NCBI GenBank assembly: GCA_903944895.1
Contig: CAJATL010000055.1
Coordinates: 1 to 35,240 of the forward strand
From: an uncultured Bacteroidota bacterium
GTDB taxonomy: Bacteria; Bacteroidota; Bacteroidia; Bacteroidales; 4484-276
Direction: 5' to 3'
Length of the DNA stretch: 35,240 nt
Of the stretch, positions 10,434-20,999 are shown in pieces. Every line of letters begins with the position of its first letter. The stretch's first letter is position 1. Under the pieces are notes generated by a model. The model worked only from the letters and a program-made list of their open reading frames with translations, was not told the origin of the DNA and did no database searches. A program made the position numbers and the translations under genes.

Positions 10434-12569
10434 TTATTTTATTTCTTTTAATTTTTTCTTTCCTTCGCTATTATTCGCAACTCTACTATACGGTATTAAC
10501 CAACAACGACTTTCATCTCTCGGAATCGCAATGTAATGAGAATGGCTGTGTTCTAACAATCCCTTTTCGTTTATTATTCTTTGTTTCCAATGCGGCAAAT
10601 TTGGAAAATCTTGCGTTTTTACAAATTCGTCTATTATTTTGTCAATCGTTTCTGTACACAATTTCAAAATCAAATCTTTAAGATATTTACTCCAATTATC
10701 TTTTTTAGTAAAGTTTCCTTTTAAATCACTTGTGTTTTCTATAATACATCGTTTGTCGGCAGAAACTACATTAAGCCACGACCACCAATAGTTATAAAAA
10801 AGTGTGTCTTGTATCGTAAATAATGCTCTTCTGAAATCATTAGAAACATCATCGGTATTTAAATAATTTACAAATACATTTTTAACTTTTTCTAATTCTG
10901 ATACCGCAAAAGTTGAAATGTTTGTATTGTCATAATCAATACAATAGAACGCAAAATCAATTTTTCCTTTACAGAAATTTGCATCTTCGGTTTCATGAAT
11001 TACTTGTTTGTTGTATTGATTTGCTATAGTTATTTTTGCTTTTTCAATTTCTTCTTTTACTTGTTCTTTTGCATGTCCTGCCGAAACTTCATTATTGGCT
11101 AAATATGTGTAAATTTCTGAGCAACCACTTGAAAGTTCTTGAACTAAATTTATCGCAGAAATAAAATCGCTTGGGTGTTCAATTGAAGAATTTTCAACAA
11201 TATTTCTCACAACTCGCAACCAATCAGAATAAGAATTTGTGTCAAAATCATTTTTCAACAAATAAATCGTTTGAGCATAAAATAAAATACGAGATTTATA
11301 TTCGGGTTTTGAATATTGAATAAAATCTTTAAAGATAGTACTTTTGCAATAACCCCATAAATCAAATTCGGGTTTTAAGTTGGAATATCCAAACGCATTA
11401 TTTTGCTTGCATGAGTATTTATTGAAACAATTAACCAAATATTTAAATGCCTCTTTTGTCGGAAAATCTTCGGGAATAACTTCTTTTGGCTTATTTGCTA
11501 ATTGCTGTATTCTTCGCTCAATTCTTTCTTTTTTAATTACTTCGTCTGTAACATCTTTAATTCTTCCTTTGTCAGAAAGTTCATTTTTGATGCTTTCTAT
11601 TTCTTCCTTGTTTTCTGCAATCTCTAAGGCTACAGCATAATAATTTATGGCTGTTCCTGCAATGAAATTGATAAGGTTAGTATCTAAACTGTAACTATTG
11701 TCTTTTTGTTTTTCTTTGTATTGCCAAAATAAATCTGTCCAAATAGTGTCAATCTTATGTGCGAATTGTTCTTCGGGATTGGCAATGCCGTCCTCAAACT
11801 TATTGATTTCAATATGTTTTTCAAATTGAGATTTGAAATTTTCAAATTCAGTCAGTTGTTTTCCTCGCGCATTCATTTTTATATACAAATCGTCTGAAAG
11901 TCCAAAATTTTCCAACTTGATATACAGGAAAGTTATTGACGGATTTTGTTCATCAATCAATTTATCCCATAATTCGGAAGTATCTTTGAATTTAAAGTGA
12001 ATAGCATCTAACATTATCAACATTGCTGAAATGGTTGGGTCTTTTTCCCAAGAGGCAACAAACCAAGCCGAATTTATTATCGTTTTAGACAATTCATTGT
12101 TTTTGCTTTGACCTTTTTTGTCAGCATCCGTCGTTAATAAATTGTTAAAATCTATGTGATTAGCCGTTAATTCATTGCAAAACTCACGAGAACTGGTTCG
12201 AGTTTCATAACTAAATTTTCTTTTTGTGATTTCGTTTTTTTCGTCTCGAATTTCTAACTGATTTTGTAAATCGTCTATTTTATTTTCTTTCGTTGCGATA
12301 TACCAATGCAACAAAAATAATGTCGTCAAGCGTTGTTGCCCGTCAAGAGGTTGCAAAGTGTAATTATCTTCGCTACCATAAATAAAATCCAATTCAACAG
12401 GTTTTTCGGTGAGAGCATAATAGAGTGAAGTTAAAAATTTGTCACGAATTTTCTGCTGATTTTCACGACCTTGCGCATAATCTCTTTGAATAATTGGTAT
12501 TTCTATGCTTATCTTAGTAAGTAGTTGCCAAAAACTTAATCTCTCAAATTGTTTATTATTATCGTTCAT
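10434..12569 (-). CDS. DUF262 (GmrS-type) protein without recognisable HNH domain
   Basis: Protein of 711 residues. The N-terminus carries the DUF262 signatures IPIIQRDYAQGR (24-35), LQPLDGQQRLTT (72-83) and a later (I/L)KMNARGKQLTEFE motif, features of the nucleotide-sensing ParB/Srx-like fold of GmrSD-type IV restriction systems. The remaining 400 or so residues look helical. They contain no DUF1524/HNH motif that I can recognise, although the extreme C-terminus has an unusual EHSHSHYIAIP...CWLIPYSR segment. The start ATG overlaps the stop of the upstream DUF262-DUF1524 gene by 4 bp (ATGA), so the pair is translationally coupled. The gene is markedly AT-rich compared with the T9SS gene beside it, a sign of horizontal origin. 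Likely role: partner, regulator or second sensor in a defence system; not proven by sequence. Confidence 0.85.
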   Translation of the reverse strand: MNDNNKQFERLSFWQLLTKISIEIPIIQRDYAQGRENQQKIRDKFLTSLYYALTEKPVELDFIYGSEDNYTLQPLDGQQRLTTLFLLHWYIATKENKIDDLQNQLEIRDEKNEITKRKFSYETRTSSREFCNELTANHIDFNNLLTTDADKKGQSKNNELSKTIINSAWFVASWEKDPTISAMLIMLDAIHFKFKDTSELWDKLIDEQNPSITFLYIKLENFGLSDDLYIKMNARGKQLTEFENFKSQFEKHIEINKFEDGIANPEEQFAHKIDTIWTDLFWQYKEKQKDNSYSLDTNLINFIAGTAINYYAVALEIAENKEEIESIKNELSDKGRIKDVTDEVIKKERIERRIQQLANKPKEVIPEDFPTKEAFKYLVNCFNKYSCKQNNAFGYSNLKPEFDLWGYCKSTIFKDFIQYSKPEYKSRILFYAQTIYLLKNDFDTNSYSDWLRVVRNIVENSSIEHPSDFISAINLVQELSSGCSEIYTYLANNEVSAGHAKEQVKEEIEKAKITIANQYNKQVIHETEDANFCKGKIDFAFYCIDYDNTNISTFAVSELEKVKNVFVNYLNTDDVSNDFRRALFTIQDTLFYNYWWSWLNVVSADKRCIIENTSDLKGNFTKKDNWSKYLKDLILKLCTETIDKIIDEFVKTQDFPNLPHWKQRIINEKGLLEHSHSHYIAIPRDESRCWLIPYSRVANNSEGKKKLKEIK

Positions 12570-14251
12570 TGTGTATCCTCCTTTGGCAAATAATTATCTT
12601 TAATGTTACTAAAATACTGGTTTCTATCTTTTTCGCCCCAAAAAGTCATTTGTTCGATTTTATGACTATAATATTTCATAAACACATTTTTGGTACAAAT
12701 CGGGACAAATGTTCCAGCTTTTTCTTTTTCAATAATAGTTTTTCGTTTTACAGGGAAAACGGAATTTTTGTAACCTCGATTTGTGCCTGCATCTAACAAA
12801 ACAAGATTAGATAAATCGTTAATATCTTCGTGCTTATGGTTTTCGTCAAAATAATTTAAAATATCTTTAAACAATGACTCAAAAGTTTCCTTTGAGTAAT
12901 TATTCAACTTTTCTATCAAATCAGTCCGTGTTTCATCTACAAATTCTTTTGCCTGCTCTAACCAATCTTTTTGGTGTTGTTCGGTTTTTGGCATTTCAGT
13001 TGCGATTGCGTGAATATGCTCAATGTCCCATTTTTCTCTTTTGTAACGATTAAAAGGGAATCGAGAAGTTTCATTTTTGTTATTGAGCATAGTTTGAATA
13101 TTGTGCATTAACAAAATACTTCTGATATTTCCATTGCCATATTCTATCTCGTCTAATTGAAGATTTGCAAACTTATTTTTTATTTTCTTGTCAATTAAAA
13201 CCTTAAAAGCGGATTTATTTTGCGTTTGAGATTGGATTAATAGATTGTTAATATCTTCTCCAAGTGTAATTAAAAAGCCGATTTTATGATATAGTTCTCT
13301 GCTTTCAAACCAATTTTGTAATGTTTGAAAGCATCGTTTTATTTCTTTCCAATTGCCAGTGATAATTTGCTCGGTATTATCCGTAAATTTTTCGTGAAAT
13401 TTGCGAAAAGTGTAATAATTATCTTCTGTGTTTGCAGATTTGCCAACGAGCAATTCAAAAAGAAATTCTATGCGAGTTTCTTTTTTGTTTTCCTCTTTAT
13501 TTACAAAAAGCCAAAATTCATCATTGTGTAATTCCGTTTCTATAATATCCCATTCGGTCGCAATTTCTAATTGTTTTAATCTTATGCGTTCTACATCAAC
13601 AATGTTTTCTGTTTTAAAATTTGAACTGTTTAGAAATAGTGCTTTTATAAGTTCTGCATTAGTCAAAGGAATTTTCCCCATATTAATACGAGAAAAAATG
13701 TCTCGTCCGTCTTGTGTCGGGTCTGTTTCATACCAAATAACTTTTGTTTTTTCTTTGAATTTGGATTGAAATTCATTTTCGTCAAATTTGCCATTCTTTT
13801 TTTCTATTACCCAATTATTGATTGCTTGATATGCTGATGAAATATATTGATAGTCAATATTTTTGTCATTTATTATTACTTTATTATCATCTTCCACTTT
13901 CATAGCTTTCAGAAAAAAGTAACTGTCATTTCTTGTTTGATATGTAATGATTGGCTCACTAATTTTTTGCTTACCAACCCACATTTCATTGAAGTAGTGA
14001 ATAATTAAAAAAATAGTTGTCAAGCGTTGTTGTCCGTCAATAACTTCCCATTCGTTTTCGTTTTTTTGTTTAACCACAAGAGGTTGCAAACAATACCACT
14101 CGTTCTTTTGTGGTATGAAATCGCAAATATCGTCAAGCAAATCATTAACTTGTTGCTTTGTCCAACGATACCCTCGTTGATAAGAAGGAATAAAAAAATT
14201 AATTCCCAATAATTTACTGACTGTTTTTAACTCAATATTGTTTTTTGCCAT
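12566..14251 (-). CDS. DUF262-DUF1524 (GmrSD-like) type IV restriction-type nuclease
   Basis: Protein of 561 residues with a fused sensor-nuclease layout. DUF262 is shown by IPSYQRGYRW (21-30), VIDGQQRLTT (70-79) and IFSRINMGKIPLTNAELIKALF (185-206). DUF1524, an HNH-type nuclease, is shown near the C-terminus by WDIEHIHA (408-415) and by LSNLVLLDAGTNRGYKNS (480-497), giving His and Asn residues as expected for a beta-beta-alpha metal site. Known GmrSD enzymes use NTP hydrolysis to cleave phage DNA with sugar-modified cytosines, and SspE of phosphorothioate systems has the same fusion. The target here is unknown. It is the first gene of a two-gene operon. The typical HxxP signature of DUF1524 is replaced by EHIHA. 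Base composition is roughly 30% GC by spot count. Confidence 0.88.
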   Translation of the reverse strand: MAKNNIELKTVSKLLGINFFIPSYQRGYRWTKQQVNDLLDDICDFIPQKNEWYCLQPLVVKQKNENEWEVIDGQQRLTTIFLIIHYFNEMWVGKQKISEPIITYQTRNDSYFFLKAMKVEDDNKVIINDKNIDYQYISSAYQAINNWVIEKKNGKFDENEFQSKFKEKTKVIWYETDPTQDGRDIFSRINMGKIPLTNAELIKALFLNSSNFKTENIVDVERIRLKQLEIATEWDIIETELHNDEFWLFVNKEENKKETRIEFLFELLVGKSANTEDNYYTFRKFHEKFTDNTEQIITGNWKEIKRCFQTLQNWFESRELYHKIGFLITLGEDINNLLIQSQTQNKSAFKVLIDKKIKNKFANLQLDEIEYGNGNIRSILLMHNIQTMLNNKNETSRFPFNRYKREKWDIEHIHAIATEMPKTEQHQKDWLEQAKEFVDETRTDLIEKLNNYSKETFESLFKDILNYFDENHKHEDINDLSNLVLLDAGTNRGYKNSVFPVKRKTIIEKEKAGTFVPICTKNVFMKYYSHKIEQMTFWGEKDRNQYFSNIKDNYLPKEDTQ

Positions 14252-14869
14252 AATTTTATTATTTGTTTTTTTGATGCTTCACAATTGCATTGAGATGTTT
14301 GGCTTGCAAATATCTCGGTTATAATTACAGAAAAACCATACCATCACTACCTAATTCGGCATGTATCGTAAAGTCTGTACAATTCGTTATTTCTTTAATA
14401 TTAATCATATTCCATCAATTTTTACTAAAAAATCAAGCTTCAAATGTAAACTTTTTACAAATCAGAAAACGATATGTTTCCAAAAAAATAATTTTCCTAT
14501 CTCCTTGAGTTCTCAGTATTTTTCAATTTCATCTCCGATAAAATATTTTTTCACAACAAATCTTTTTTCGTGCAATTTACTGTCTTAAAAAATCTGCTCT
14601 CAAGGATCGAAAAATAAATCTCCTTACAAAAAAATATTTTCTCGCGACATAATTTATTTTTGTCGCCAGAAAATAAAATTTTGTCGCGATGTTTTTTTTG
14701 CCATTCAGTACACGAAAAAAAGAACTTCCGGATTAAAAGAAAAAAACTGCTGTTGCCTTTTGAATTTTTGCTTCATGACCGGAACAAAAAAATGTGTAGT
14801 CATCGAAAAGACTGCGCATCGCTGTATTGAAACACTACAAGTTTTTGGCATTTGTTGGCTTGATAGCTT
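14252..14869. other. 618-bp AT-rich intergenic region in the defence island
   Basis: No convincing protein gene on either strand. It contains the DUF262 operon upstream region (a one-mismatch -7, GATATTTG on the minus strand, near 14310), a pair of 8-bp inverted repeats far apart (TCCTTGAG 14502-14509 and CTCAAGGA 14599-14606), and a long AT-rich hairpin at 14642-14689. It also holds a weak terminator-like element below the HU gene near 14790-14845: TGTAGT/ACTACA pairing with a T7 tract on the minus strand. Several homopolymer A/T runs are present. Room exists for a small RNA, but no known family was recognised. Confidence 0.5.
14642..14689. repeat. Long AT-rich hairpin with TCGCGACA/TGTCGCGA arms
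   Basis: TCGCGACA (14642-14649) pairs perfectly with TGTCGCGA (14682-14689). After one mismatch the stem goes on through about 10 further A/T pairs with one bulge. The loop itself contains a third related motif, TGTCGCC (14661-14667). T-rich tracts follow on both strands (T8 from 14692 on plus; T7 after the stem on minus). It could terminate HU transcription or be a structured RNA or protein-binding site. Confidence 0.6.
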
Positions 14870-15475: not shown

Positions 15476-18400
15476 CTATTTCCCCTCCACAATCTTAATT
15501 TCTTCTTCGGTAAGTTCGTAAAGTTTGTAAACCATTTCGTCAATTTCCCTCTCATAACCGGTGGTGTCGTGGCCTTGTTGTTTGGCTTCGAGGATTTTGT
15601 CAACAAGTTCTAAAAAAGGTACTTGATCTACAAATGAAATTTTCTTTATTGGAAATTTCCTGCAATTTTCAATAAGAATTTTTTGAAATAATTCTTTTTC
15701 AATGTCAAGGTACAGATATTTATGAACAAAATTTATTAAAGAAGAATTTAGTAATGCAGTTAAATATTTGGGATCAATATCCTTTTCCTTTTTAGGAATT
15801 AATGAAAATCCAATTTGAGTGAAATATACTTTTTGGTCTGTAAAACCAGCATAGATTCTCAAAGGATTCCCAGAGACAATTTGCCGAACAATAACTCTTG
15901 GTTCAGTAAAAAATCTTTCTTCACGTGGAGCACCAAGCCAATCTCCATACTTCAAATATTCTTTTGGTGAAGGGTCAACAAAGTAGCGTTGAATATTACC
16001 TCCAGATATTAACGGTTTGAATTCGTCGCTCAATTTTGTATTTGAATGAAATGCTCTTTCTTTAATTTGTAAATCAGTATGACCTCTATATTTATCATAG
16101 GGTGTAATTCCTAGCGTGAAATGAGCTAATTGTTCCAAAGGGATTGAGTTCAGTATTGTTTTTGAAATGACTTTTTGAATGTCGTTTGAAAGGTAAATAT
16201 TAAACTTTAAATCCTCAAAAATATTCCAAATTACTTTTGATTGCTTTTCCGCTAAATCTTCATGAATAAAATTTACTTTCTCATCATGCTTGTATCGTAT
16301 TACATCGATATTTTCTATTTTAACATTTTTAATAAACGAAATAATGATTGTTTCTACTTTGACATCAGATTCTGCAAATACATTGTCAGGCAACTTAATT
16401 ATTTCAGTAACATTATTTGCAATTAGCTTTCTGATTTTGGAATACGAAGAATTCATCAAAATTGAGTTGGGATTGATAAAACTAAACCTCCCATTGTGGC
16501 GAAGTATTTTATTCCCTAATTCTATGAAAAGAGAATAAATATTTAATCTGTTTTCGGTTGTAGCAAAATTTGAAAACAGAAAATCTACAAAGGTTGGATC
16601 TAAGCCTTTAATATCAATATAAGGAGGGTTTCCAATAACAATATCAAATCCCTCAAACTCCCCGTCATTATTAAGCACTTCTGGAAACTCAAACCGCCAT
16701 TCGAAAGCGTTTTTGTAGATAACATTATTAAGTATTGCTTCCTTTTCAGCTTCAAGCTTTGCTAGAGTACGCGCAGCCTTTTCGAGTTTTTCCTTCAAGG
16801 CTTTGGGCGCTTTTTCACCCATTAGTAGCAAGTTGTGCATGTCGTTCATAATAAGGTCAACTACACCCCGGGCTTTTGCAATCTTTCCTTTAAAGGGGTC
16901 ATCAATTTTTGATCTGAAATCACCTTTTATGCCGTCAATGATCTTCTGCAGGCCACGTTTCACGTCCCTGTTTTTTTCGTTTTTGTAATCGTTTACAAAA
17001 CCGCGGTAGGCTTCTATGTCGTACTTAATGCTTTTGAGCGTCTTGCTCAGATCGGCATCCAGCGCAAAACGGCTCAGCAGACTGTTCCCGCATTTAATAT
17101 TGATGTCGATGTTGGGAAGGGTTTCTAACCGCTCTTCCTCCACCTCTCCGTTTTGGAGAGTGGGCCGGGGGGTGAGGTAATAAGCATTCTTCAAAAGCTC
17201 AATCCACAACCGTAACCGGCAAATTTTTACCGAGTTTGGATTGATATCAACACCAAAAAGGCAGCTCTCGATAATGGTTTGCTTTTCGTGAAAAAGGGTT
17301 TTTTGAACTCTTTGTTGTTCTTTATGAGGAACGGTTCTAAAACTTAATTTATCACCTCCAAACCTGTATTGTACAGTTCTGTTAATGACTTTTGGGGCAA
17401 GATATGAAAATTCATCGTCGGAATCGGCATCAAAAACACGAAGTTCATCATTGATAATTTCGACTTTATAATCGGAAATGCGCAGACCATTTTCATCGGC
17501 CAATAAACCCAGTTCATACTTGATAACGATGAGTTCGTTGAGCGAAGAAACCAGGAAATGCCCGCTGCCAACGGCGGGATCGCAAATCCGAAGCGAATTG
17601 ATCACGGCATTAAATTCGAGTATGTCCTTTGCCGAACGGCGGTCGGTGAGGTAGTTTTTAAGATCGTCAAAGGTTTCGATGGTCCATGCGTACCTTTCTC
17701 TGAACTTCTGCATTACCGCCAGCCGGATTGATTTCCGGCACATGTACATCGTAATAAAACCGGGGGTAAAAATGGAGCCGTCCTTGTACCCGTTTATTTT
17801 CTCGAACACCTTGCCCAAAACCGAAGCGTTGATGATGTTTTTGTTGTCTTCCTGCACCTCGTCGGTTCCCTCGCTGGCAAAGTCGTACGCATCCAGAAAC
17901 CTGAAAAGATAATCCAGCGTTGGCAGTTTGCCGGTGTTCTTTTTTACATCTTTTAAAATGGTTGTACCGATTAATTCGAGCTGGCCATCGTTGTCGAGCG
18001 AATTAATTTTGATGATCTGGTCTTCGAGTTCGCTGATTTCGAACAGGGAACTGTTTAAGTAAGGCACGTGGCTGTATTTGCTTTTGATGGCGTCGGTGCG
18101 GTCGTTGAGGTTTACGGCCAGCACTTTATGGAAAAGTTTAAACAGTTCGTCGAAGTCGTGGATGGTTTCGGTATTCAGGAAAAGATAATCGTCCTCAGCC
18201 TTCCGTCCTCCGCCAAATGAAGCGGGCGATTTATGATACGACACCAACTGGCTTTCGAGCAATTTGAGGAATAAAATGCGGTTAATCCAGGTAATGCAAA
18301 GCTCAAGGGCAACGCTGAAAATCCTTTCTTCTCTGGTTTTGCCGTAAATGGATGCGTCGGGCAGGCGGTGCAGCGTGTCTTCGGTATTGATGGCATCAAT

Positions 18401-19267
18401 AACCAGTTCGATGAGCGATGCAGCATTGCGGTTTACAATTTTGCGGCGGATAATATTTTTTGTGCCTTCCCTGGCTTCTTCCAGCCCGATGATGTGAAGC
18501 AATTCCCTGTAAAACTTCTCGTTGAGGGCGTTACTGTCGTTGGGCGAGGCAATTTTTAATAAATGCTGGGGCGAAAGTATTTTAAACAAAGCACTCAAGG
18601 CTTTGTCGTCTTCGCGGATATTGTTCCGTAAAATGGTGTTGTAATCCCTGATATCGAAGTAAACACAGGGTATTTCGATGTCGGACTTCTGGATGATTTT
18701 AGAGATTTCCTCGTAAAAGAAAGGGTTGTCTTTGCGATCGTTTATTTTTGTTTCGTACAGTTTCCTGATTTGTGTGTTGCGGTAAATGTGTTTATCGAAA
18801 TGGTTTGCATCGATGATGTACCACTCGTTAACATTAGTTAGAACAAGGTTTTTCAACTGAATGTTGCCGGCTTTGTTGCGCTCGTCGAGATAATAAAGGA
18901 TGAGTTCGTGAAGCGCTTTCCTGTTTGGGTTTTCGGCCGACACCATTTCGTTGAGGTTTGTTGGCCGCTTGGCTTCGATAATAACCGCGGCTTCGCTGTC
19001 GGTTGTTTTGCCGAGATGAATCACGAGGTCTTTCCTGTCTTTGGTGTTAATGGCGTTGGTGTCGCGGTAGTAGGTATCGCGCAGGAAGTCGCGCAGGTTG
19101 TTTTTAAGATGTTCTTCGCTTTCGTCGGTAGGTTGTGTTTCGATAACAGCAATTTTATCGAGCAAGGCAATGAGGTTGGTTTTAAAAACATCAATTTCGC
19201 TTCGTAAAGGCTTTTGCTTCAGGAAGGCTTTGAGTGCTTTTTTGGGCGTTTGAGGTATTAATTTCAT
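15476..19267 (-). CDS. Single-chain type IIG restriction-modification enzyme (Eco57I-like)
   Basis: Protein of 1263 residues combining cleavage, methylation and specificity. The N-terminal nuclease carries a PD-(D/E)XK pattern: D80 (KDLVIH) and E98-x-K100 (VIIEAKRP). A long helical connector follows. The gamma-class adenine methylase has a motif X-like GSIFTPGFIT (497-506), motif I ICDPAVGSGHF (561-571) and the catalytic NPPY (880-883, in IVIGNPPYIDIKG). A TaqI-like C-terminal specificity domain spans about 1040-1220 (ISGGNIQRYF ... RVIVRQIVSG ... TQIGFSLIPK). It should make N6-methyladenine and cut unmodified DNA at a distance from its site. BREX PglX shares the methylase core, but the N-terminal nuclease and lack of other brx genes argue against BREX. 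The segment coding residues of about 885-1219 is far more AT-rich than the rest. Confidence 0.92.
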   Translation of the reverse strand: MKLIPQTPKKALKAFLKQKPLRSEIDVFKTNLIALLDKIAVIETQPTDESEEHLKNNLRDFLRDTYYRDTNAINTKDRKDLVIHLGKTTDSEAAVIIEAKRPTNLNEMVSAENPNRKALHELILYYLDERNKAGNIQLKNLVLTNVNEWYIIDANHFDKHIYRNTQIRKLYETKINDRKDNPFFYEEISKIIQKSDIEIPCVYFDIRDYNTILRNNIREDDKALSALFKILSPQHLLKIASPNDSNALNEKFYRELLHIIGLEEAREGTKNIIRRKIVNRNAASLIELVIDAINTEDTLHRLPDASIYGKTREERIFSVALELCITWINRILFLKLLESQLVSYHKSPASFGGGRKAEDDYLFLNTETIHDFDELFKLFHKVLAVNLNDRTDAIKSKYSHVPYLNSSLFEISELEDQIIKINSLDNDGQLELIGTTILKDVKKNTGKLPTLDYLFRFLDAYDFASEGTDEVQEDNKNIINASVLGKVFEKINGYKDGSIFTPGFITMYMCRKSIRLAVMQKFRERYAWTIETFDDLKNYLTDRRSAKDILEFNAVINSLRICDPAVGSGHFLVSSLNELIVIKYELGLLADENGLRISDYKVEIINDELRVFDADSDDEFSYLAPKVINRTVQYRFGGDKLSFRTVPHKEQQRVQKTLFHEKQTIIESCLFGVDINPNSVKICRLRLWIELLKNAYYLTPRPTLQNGEVEEERLETLPNIDINIKCGNSLLSRFALDADLSKTLKSIKYDIEAYRGFVNDYKNEKNRDVKRGLQKIIDGIKGDFRSKIDDPFKGKIAKARGVVDLIMNDMHNLLLMGEKAPKALKEKLEKAARTLAKLEAEKEAILNNVIYKNAFEWRFEFPEVLNNDGEFEGFDIVIGNPPYIDIKGLDPTFVDFLFSNFATTENRLNIYSLFIELGNKILRHNGRFSFINPNSILMNSSYSKIRKLIANNVTEIIKLPDNVFAESDVKVETIIISFIKNVKIENIDVIRYKHDEKVNFIHEDLAEKQSKVIWNIFEDLKFNIYLSNDIQKVISKTILNSIPLEQLAHFTLGITPYDKYRGHTDLQIKERAFHSNTKLSDEFKPLISGGNIQRYFVDPSPKEYLKYGDWLGAPREERFFTEPRVIVRQIVSGNPLRIYAGFTDQKVYFTQIGFSLIPKKEKDIDPKYLTALLNSSLINFVHKYLYLDIEKELFQKILIENCRKFPIKKISFVDQVPFLELVDKILEAKQQGHDTTGYEREIDEMVYKLYELTEEEIKIVEGK

Positions 19268-19544: not shown

Positions 19545-20999
19545 TTAGCCATTGCGCAGTTGTTTTTGTGAAATGGTATTTTTCCCCACGGTGTAGGCAT
19601 ACAAAGATGAGGGCAAAAAATGTAAAGTCATCTCATCCATTGCTTTACTGCCACTTTTATCAATCGTTGTTGTTAAAGCATTTTTGAGTTTATTGGTGCT
19701 GCAAAAACTTAGGAGCGCTTTCAACTCACCGGGACTTTCAAAGTAACGATTGCTCCATTTAATTTCCAATGCCCAAAGTGGTTTAAAGTTTTGTGGCGAC
19801 AATCCAACCATATCAACCTCGCCCTGGAATCTTCCCTGCGACCACCGGGCATACCAGGGTTCAAACCATTCACGCTGCAACCATTGCGCATAAATAGCCG
19901 TTTCGACCATGGCGCCCATTAATTTATCGGTTGCCTGTAAGGGTGTAAACAGTGCGCTCCTTAACGAAGGGTTGGTTAAATAAATTTTGAAATAATTTGC
20001 CCTGCTGAATTTTTTGGCATTATGATCAATCCGGTGTACTATTTTTATCAGAAATGCTGCTTCAAGGTATTGGATGTATCGTTTGATCATATTTTTCTCG
20101 ACTCCTCCCGATGATTGACTCAGGGCTTCCAATGAAAATTCCTGTCCCGAATTATAGGCAATGCTGGTAAACAGCGAATTTAATTCCTGCACATCCTGAA
20201 TTCCATACAAACTGGGCAAATCTCTTAGCAGTACTTTATCAATAATGTCAGATTTAATAAAGCGCGAAGGGTTGACCTGCATTTTTTCGGAGAAGATAAT
20301 TTCGGGATAACCTCCATAATTGATGTATTTCAGAAAATGCTCATTCAGCAAAGCGATATTGGTGGATTCATAAAAACTTGTAACATTGCCATCCCAGTCA
20401 ATATTTGAAGGAATTATTAAATGGTGAAGTTGCAACAAATGAATGTATTCGTTGAAGGTTAAAGGTGGCAACATAAAATCAGTAAAACGCCCTGCCCCGC
20501 TTTCGTTGCTCTTTAGTTTAAGTGCCGCTGCAGCCGAACCACTCGCCACGAATTTACAATGTGGGTAGGAATCAACCAACGATTTTAAATGTACTTCCCA
20601 ATCTTTTAAATATTGTATTTCATCAAAAAAGACATACCAGCCTTTTGGTTCCGATTTCCCGGTAGCTTTGATGCAGGATTTAAACAGTTGTTCCAAAGGC
20701 ATCTTATTAAAAAATGGATTCTCGACCGAAACAAAAGCTATCTGATGCGGCGATACGCCATTCTTGAGCAAAGTTTCGATTGCATGGTAAATCATGACTG
20801 TTTTACCTACACGCCGTGGCCCCATTAAAATAACGGCTCTTCGTATCGTAATATCCTCGACCAACGGGAAAAACAAATCGAAATACAAGCGTTTTTGCAT
20901 TTTCGAATAATCCTCATCCACTTTTCCGGTTGCCCACCACGGGTTTTCCTGTTTTAGCCTGTCGAGCACCTGCTCCTCCGATAATGGTAATAATGCCAT
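19545..20999 (-). CDS. AAA+ ATPase with DUF4143 C-terminal domain
   Basis: Protein of 484 residues of the AAA_14/DUF4143 type. Walker A is GPRRVGKT (60-67), Walker B is WYVFFDEIQ (121-129) and the sensor motif is VASGS (151-155). The C-terminal third has the pattern GEVDMV ... WALEIKWSNR, an E/D plus ExK arrangement like PD-(D/E)XK nucleases, usual for DUF4143. The family is abundant in Bacteroidota and often thought to be linked to mobile DNA or toxin-like functions, but its biochemical job is unknown. The gene is transcribed from its own promoter, 277 bp upstream of the type IIG gene and on the same strand. Its composition is closer to the core genes than the DUF262 pair. A defence role is possible only by association. 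Confidence 0.88.
   Translation of the reverse strand: MALLPLSEEQVLDRLKQENPWWATGKVDEDYSKMQKRLYFDLFFPLVEDITIRRAVILMGPRRVGKTVMIYHAIETLLKNGVSPHQIAFVSVENPFFNKMPLEQLFKSCIKATGKSEPKGWYVFFDEIQYLKDWEVHLKSLVDSYPHCKFVASGSAAAALKLKSNESGAGRFTDFMLPPLTFNEYIHLLQLHHLIIPSNIDWDGNVTSFYESTNIALLNEHFLKYINYGGYPEIIFSEKMQVNPSRFIKSDIIDKVLLRDLPSLYGIQDVQELNSLFTSIAYNSGQEFSLEALSQSSGGVEKNMIKRYIQYLEAAFLIKIVHRIDHNAKKFSRANYFKIYLTNPSLRSALFTPLQATDKLMGAMVETAIYAQWLQREWFEPWYARWSQGRFQGEVDMVGLSPQNFKPLWALEIKWSNRYFESPGELKALLSFCSTNKLKNALTTTIDKSGSKAMDEMTLHFLPSSLYAYTVGKNTISQKQLRNG

What the first reader, a model, noticed from the sequence alone, without database searches (positions are those of the whole stretch)
10434..14251. Two overlapping DUF262 genes, only one with a nuclease domain
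Seen: both proteins carry the DGQQRLTT signature; the stop of the first overlaps the start of the second by ATGA; only the 561-residue protein has an HNH/DUF1524-type C-terminus; both genes are strongly AT-rich. Known: GmrSD systems have one DUF262 and one DUF1524 part, split or fused. Inference: a doubled sensor, with a fused nuclease plus a second DUF262 protein with a large helical C-terminus, is not the classical layout and may be a distinct anti-phage system in which the second protein regulates or re-targets the nuclease.
Basis: partly seen in the sequence, partly recalled or inferred. Interest (0 to 1): 0.65.

Follow-up and report, generated by a model that had tools for sequence, protein, structure and literature searches.

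The report
GrwAB-type two-gene phage restriction system
Two overlapping bacterial genes encode a nuclease and an essential-looking partner that very probably cut up phage DNA carrying unusual chemical modifications; the same two-gene layout was described in cholera bacteria in 2025 as GrwAB, so this is a new member of a known kind rather than a new system.

Summary
In detail: D561 (window 12566-14251, -) and D711 (10434-12569, -) overlap by ATGA, both carry a DUF262/GmrSD_N domain with DGQQR, and only D561 has a DUF1524/His-Me nuclease end. The pair is a sharp 30% GC block between 46-47% GC neighbours. It is not a chance arrangement. In a collection scan, 76 of 80 D711 relatives lie directly behind a D561 relative on the same strand, one is fused to it in frame, one follows a degraded copy, and two start at a contig edge. 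Conversely, every close D561 relative found in Bacteroidota has a D711 relative behind it. The layout, gene order and catalytic-residue pattern match GrwAB (Nat Microbiol 2025, PMC12137116), a two-gene GmrSD-like type IV restriction system in which both proteins are required and phages with modified DNA are targeted. It is not TgvAB-type: gene order and His-Asn spacing differ. D711 shows no cryptic nuclease: residues 1-530 resemble SspE/DndI, and a variable C-terminal part replaces DUF1524. New here are a natural A-B fusion and near-obligate pairing across phyla. Direct comparison with V. cholerae GrwA/GrwB was not possible.

The parts
12566..14251 (-). D561, GrwA-type nuclease subunit: N-terminal DUF262 (about residues 1-210; Q25-R26, D72GQQR76, F186xxxN190), helical linker, C-terminal DUF1524 His-Me finger (H412, N482, N491)
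   Evidence: Pfam GmrSD_N E=9.2e-34; invariant residues in 62 homologues; AlphaFold model pLDDT 90.7 aligned over 1-561 to SspE, Z 16.5
10434..12569 (-). D711, GrwB-type partner: N-terminal DUF262 (about residues 1-250; Q28-R29, D76GQQR80, YIKMN233), helical middle with family-specific R452/N456/E507/K510/E528/G535, variable C-terminal part (about 540-711), no nuclease motif
   Evidence: Pfam GmrSD_N E=9.1e-19; alignment of 74 homologues; model pLDDT 87.1; residues 1-536 aligned to SspE (Z 13.6) and 5-491 to DndI (Z 13.2); no conserved His outside DUF262 except a partial column 530
12566..12569 (-). ATGA overlap of D561 stop (TGA) and D711 start (ATG): probable translational coupling of a bicistronic unit
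   Evidence: close coupling also seen in homologous pairs, gaps from -209 to +14, mostly within 20 bases, with mechanical start calls
14252..14869 (.). AT-rich upstream intergenic region (GC 0.30), likely to hold the promoter of the pair; not tested
   Evidence: for GC; inference for promoter
15476..19267 (-). Neighbour, not a conserved component: type IIG restriction-methyltransferase
   Evidence: PADLOC REase_MTase_IIG 753 bits; no homologue in the 80 loci of related pairs

Best explanation
The two genes form a bicistronic, two-protein type IV (modification-dependent) restriction system of the GrwAB kind. D561 is the nuclease subunit, with a DUF262 NTPase/sensor domain joined by a helical linker to a DUF1524 His-Me nuclease. 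D711 is an obligate partner with its own DUF262 NTPase domain and, in place of the nuclease, a helical and variable C-terminal region. Most likely the two make a 1:1 complex. Binding of hypermodified phage DNA, plus NTP binding and hydrolysis at the two DUF262 sites, releases the D561 nuclease to cut that DNA. Shown here: gene layout, domains, invariant catalytic residues, no nuclease motif in D711, near-obligate pairing in fixed order, correlated divergence, one natural fusion. Taken from work on GrwAB (PMC12137116): need for both proteins and both DGQQR motifs, and targeting of modified DNA. Inferred: the 1:1 complex, the C-terminal part as DNA or modification contact, and which modification is seen by this copy.
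For: Pairing: 76 of 80 loci from the genome scan have a D561 relative directly upstream on the same strand; L090 is an in-frame fusion, nuclease part at residues 123-632 and partner part at 644-1198; L078 keeps a degraded upstream end; L027 and L092 start at the contig edge. Fifteen of 17 viral-contig loci have the same order. From the other side, all 12 Bacteroidota genomes with a close D561 relative (profile score 250 bits or more) have a D711 relative downstream, while the weaker places (under 130 bits) do not. D561 and D711 identities co-vary over 60 pairs, Spearman 0.72, 0 of 999 permutations as high. GrwAB match: order and domain layout as in PMC12137116. GrwA R81/H431/N521/N530 correspond to D561 R76/H412/N482/N491. 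Asn-Asn spacing is 9 in all 62 relatives and in GrwA. His-Asn spacing is 70 in D561, 61-116 in the family and 90 in GrwA, but 22-31 in other GmrSD-like proteins measured here and 31 in TgvB (PMC11411939). GrwB R86 against D711 R80. Structures resemble SspE, DndI and BrxU.
Against: The V. cholerae GrwA and GrwB sequences could not be obtained, so homology to them is inferred from layout, residue numbers and spacing, not from an alignment. D711 has Y229xxxN233 where the third DUF262 motif is given as FxxxN. No experiment exists on this pair, and DNA-modification dependence cannot be read from sequence. Pfam DUF1524 is below its cut-off in D561. The C-terminal part of D711 (172 residues after 540) is at the short end of its family (median 264), so target range may differ from GrwAB.
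Confidence: 0.85

Rival explanations
1. It is a TgvAB-type system, the other published two-protein GmrSD-like restriction system.
For: Both kinds consist of two DUF262 proteins of which only one has DUF1524 (PMC11411939), and homologous pairs here are found inside type I restriction operons, as tgvAB is.
Against: Gene order is reversed (tgvA, DUF262-only, comes first). TgvB H571-N602 spacing is 31 against 70 in D561. Pairs in TgvAB order (L123, L129, L144, L145) form their own well supported DUF262 clades apart from D561 and D711. The GrwAB authors also state that GrwB and TgvA differ outside DUF262.
Confidence: 0.04
2. D561 is a self-sufficient single-protein GmrSD/HEC-06/BrxU-like enzyme, and D711 is an accessory, for example protecting it from phage inhibitors or restraining it.
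For: D561 has every domain of single-chain GmrSD enzymes and aligns end to end with SspE. PADLOC HEC-06 is its best hit, and HEC-06 and BrxU act alone (PMC11411939).
Against: No close D561 relative without D711 was seen. HEC-06 matches only residues 3-220. In GrwAB both genes were required.
Confidence: 0.08
3. The pair is the restriction or sensing half of a larger system with the neighbouring type IIG enzyme, or with a host modification as in Ssp or Dnd.
For: A type IIG enzyme lies 1.2 kb upstream, homologous pairs often sit in restriction loci, and SspE/DndI are the closest solved structures.
Against: No type IIG homologue in the other 80 loci. Type I restriction genes occur beside only about 10 of 80. 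No phosphorothioation genes among the nine window proteins scanned.
Confidence: 0.03

Closest known systems
[quoted passage not shown] cholerae (PMC12137116)
   Same: Two genes; first DUF262+DUF1524, second DUF262+unknown extended C-terminus; same order; same catalytic residue pattern and similar spacing; found in about 1% of genomes, comparable with 10 of 395 Bacteroidota here by protein search.
   Different: Different host and presumably distant sequence; D711 C-terminal part is at the short end of its family; neighbours are a type IIG enzyme and an HU gene, not Shedu.
TgvAB of V. cholerae VPI-2 (PMC11411939)
   Same: Two DUF262 proteins, one nuclease; anti-phage by sensing modified DNA; often inside type I restriction operons.
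   Different: Reverse gene order, short His-Asn spacing in TgvB, partner reported as distinct from GrwB outside DUF262.
Classical GmrSD / Eco94GmrSD / BrxU / HEC-06
   Same: D561 has the same DUF262-linker-DUF1524 architecture.
   Different: These act as one protein; here a second DUF262 protein accompanies it in nearly every relative.
SspE and DndI (phosphorothioate-sensing)
   Same: Closest solved structures for both proteins (Z 16.5 and 15.0 for D561, 13.6 and 13.2 for D711).
   Different: Single nuclease protein working with host phosphorothioation genes; none seen in this window.

Membership tests
GrwAB | Two adjacent same-strand genes, DUF262+DUF1524 first, DUF262 with non-nuclease C-terminus second | tested here: met
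   order constant in homologues
GrwAB | GrwA motifs QR, DGQQR, FxxxN and His-Me H/N/N | tested here: met
   Q25R26, D72-R76, F186xxxN190, H412, N482, N491, invariant in 62 sequences
GrwAB | GrwB motifs QR, DGQQR, FxxxN | tested here: inconclusive
   Q28R29 and D76-R80 present; third motif is Y229xxxN233, N invariant, F replaced
GrwAB | Residue spacing in GrwA: R-H 350, H-N 90, N-N 9 | tested here: met
   D561 336/70/9; family ranges 316-403, 61-116, always 9; other GmrSD-like H-N 22-31
GrwAB | Sequence homology to V. cholerae GrwA and GrwB over full length | not testable with these tools
   sequences not in the reachable collections; one attempt to reach Vibrio genomes failed
GrwAB | Both genes required; protection against phages with modified DNA | not testable with these tools
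   needs plaque assays
TgvAB | DUF262-only gene upstream of the DUF262+DUF1524 gene | tested here: not met
   order reversed
TgvAB | TgvB H571-N602 spacing of 31 | tested here: not met
   70 in D561, 61-116 in family
TgvAB | DUF262 domains cluster with TgvA/TgvB | tested here: inconclusive
   separate supported clades, but TgvAB-like rows were chosen by gene order, not by known sequence
Classical single-protein GmrSD | Functions without a second DUF262 protein | tested here: inconclusive
   function untested; near-obligate partner in homologues argues against
SspE/DndI | Encoded with DNA phosphorothioation genes | tested here: inconclusive
   none among the nine window proteins scanned; rest of genome not searched
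BrxU/BREX | Part of a BREX locus | tested here: inconclusive
   the nearby methylase scores as type IIG (753 bits) rather than PglX (79 bits); other BREX genes not seen in the scanned part

The most novel reading that the evidence does not exclude
GrwB-type proteins are not accessory but the second half of a two-key sensor. The two anciently separate DUF262 domains (D561 and D711 types) form an asymmetric heterodimer in which both must bind NTP and modified DNA before the single nuclease fires, with the variable C-terminal part of D711 setting which modification is read. The natural fusion and the correlated divergence make this testable.
Probability: 0.3. Interest if true: 0.5.

Novelty: new member of a known kind. 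Interest (0 to 1): 0.27.

Why it matters
Why GrwAB and TgvAB need two DUF262 proteins, when GmrSD and BrxU need one, is an open question stated by their discoverers (PMC12137116, PMC12409362). This pair extends the GrwAB kind to a Bacteroidota genome, and the relatives collected here (Bacteroidota, Spirochaetota, Bacillota, Actinomycetota, Pseudomonadota, Campylobacterota by record title) show near-obligate pairing, a fixed order and a natural single-chain fusion. The fusion is a ready-made 1:1 construct for structural work.

Tried and rejected
Cryptic nuclease in D711: no conserved His-Me motif and no DUF1524 hit. D711 as a recent duplicate of D561: rejected, their DUF262 domains form separate, strongly supported groups on long branches. 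Type IIG enzyme as a third component: no homologue in 80 loci. PADLOC, NCBIfam and PHROGs gave no family for D711; annotated phage records hold no D711 relative. Foldseek alone gave no match below E 0.001 for D711; the SspE/DndI match came from the second look and covers residues 1-536, so the part after 540 is barely tested. Reaching the V. cholerae GrwAB sequence failed: a Gammaproteobacteria sample gave three genomes with the family, none shown to be Vibrio, the ToxS marker rang nowhere, and a DNA search of E. coli genomes found nothing. PDB entry 20yv (DUF262 protein) matches only short DUF262 segments.

Full report
WHAT IS THERE. The finding's coordinates and features are correct. D561 (12566-14251, -) and D711 (10434-12569, -) overlap by ATGA. 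Both have the GmrSD_N (DUF262) domain; GmrSD_C (DUF1524) is a weak, sub-threshold hit in D561 only. The pair is a 30% GC block; the gene downstream is at 47%, the HU gene upstream at 46%, which suggests horizontal acquisition (inference).

IS THE PAIRING REAL. A protein search of 395 Bacteroidota genomes found D711 relatives in 10, each directly behind a D561 relative. In 76 a D561 relative lies directly upstream on the same strand. L090 (Victivallis MAG) is an in-frame fusion with two DGQQR motifs and one EHIFA nuclease motif. L078 carries a recognisable but frame-broken end of the upstream gene (my reading of the translation). L027 and L092 start at the contig edge. In viral contigs (IMG/VR), 15 of 17 loci show the same order; the other two (L144, L145) have the reverse, TgvAB-like order. 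Seen from D561, 12 Bacteroidota genomes with a close relative (profile score 250 bits or more) all have a D711 relative behind it, and the places below 130 bits have none. Identities of the two proteins co-vary over 60 pairs (Spearman 0.72, 0 of 999 permutations as high). This has no control for species relatedness, but the DUF262 tree shows several of the same sister pairs in both proteins.

STRUCTURE. D561 model: pLDDT 90.7; aligned with SspE over its whole length (Z 16.5) and with DndI (Z 15.0), BrxU lower (Z 7.5). Large rmsd values probably reflect domain shifts between enzymes (inference). D711 model: pLDDT 87.1; residues 1-536 align with SspE (Z 13.6) and 5-491 with DndI (Z 13.2). For a mostly helical model Z near 13 is at the edge of the background the tool describes, but the matched chains are DUF262 enzymes and stand far above the unrelated rows (Z about 4). 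Behind residue 540, D711 has a part that varies in length between relatives (166-402 residues, 172 here) and in which no nuclease motif was found. Family-specific near-invariant residues in the middle part are R452, N456, E507, K510, E528 and G535; they may form the contact with D561 (inference).

WHAT IT IS. GrwAB (PMC12137116) has a first gene with DUF262 and DUF1524 and a second with DUF262 and an unknown extended C-terminus. Both genes and both DGQQR motifs are needed. It protects E. coli against Tevenvirinae and Queuovirinae, and phage escapers map to the 7-deazaguanine-inserting enzyme DpdA. The window pair has this order and layout. GrwA residues R81, H431, N521 and N530 correspond to R76, H412, N482 and N491; the distance between the two Asn is 9 in all 62 relatives, although 9 also occurs in at least one other GmrSD-like protein (L128, read by eye), so it does not discriminate. 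The His-Asn distance does: 61-116 in this family, 90 in GrwA, against 22-31 in other GmrSD-like proteins measured here and 31 in TgvB (PMC11411939). TgvAB is disfavoured by order and by this spacing; DUF262 domains of TgvAB-ordered pairs fall into two other clades, though those rows were picked by order and not by comparison with the true TgvA/TgvB. A direct alignment with V. cholerae GrwAB was not possible, so 'GrwAB-type' is a strong inference and not a sequence result.

HOW IT LIKELY WORKS. Shown by sequence: two intact NTPase-type DUF262 motif sets (with F to Y in the third motif of D711) and one intact His-Me site. From GrwAB work: both proteins act together on modified DNA. Inferred: a 1:1 complex in which modified DNA and NTP at both DUF262 sites license the single nuclease. 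The fusion in L090 fits a 1:1 arrangement. Which modification this copy reads is unknown.

NEIGHBOURHOOD. The upstream type IIG enzyme is not conserved beside other pairs. Related pairs sit inside or beside type I restriction operons in about 10 loci (for example hsdM-hsdS-A-B-hsdR in L029, L044, L051, L063, L089, L096), and in others beside a WYL regulator, a DnaQ-like exonuclease and an AAA ATPase. This fits the general clustering of defence genes and does not define the system.

VERDICT. A real, conserved two-gene unit, very probably an anti-phage restriction system, but of a kind published in 2025.

Noticed in passing
L090:1878-5666: Natural in-frame fusion of the nuclease and partner proteins in a Victivallis MAG; no stop between the two parts.
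   Followed up: yes
L021, L039, L050, L056, L069, L088: Recurrent neighbours of the pair: WYL-WCX regulator and DnaQ-like 3'-5' exonuclease upstream, AAA ATPase often nearby; possibly an extended defence operon.
   Followed up: partly
L029, L044, L051, L063, L089, L096: The pair lies between hsdS and hsdR of a type I restriction operon, as tgvAB does in V. cholerae.
   Followed up: partly
L123, L129, L144, L145: Two-DUF262 pairs in the reverse (TgvAB-like) order, forming their own DUF262 clades.
   Followed up: partly
window 15476-19267: Type IIG restriction-methyltransferase whose C-terminal half is 35% GC and N-terminal half 44%: possible exchange of the specificity part.
   Followed up: no
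window 19545-20999: AAA_14/DUF4143 ATPase matching the PADLOC candidate family PDC-S01.
   Followed up: no
L020:6869-10755: Contig assigned to a Treponema MAG carries the nearest relatives (about 70% identity to D711, 81% to D561): recent transfer between phyla or a misbinned contig.
   Followed up: no
L113 (G316): Nuclease gene of one Bacteroidota pair is split in two frames (504 and 133 aa) while the partner stays open: a decaying copy or a sequencing error.
   Followed up: no
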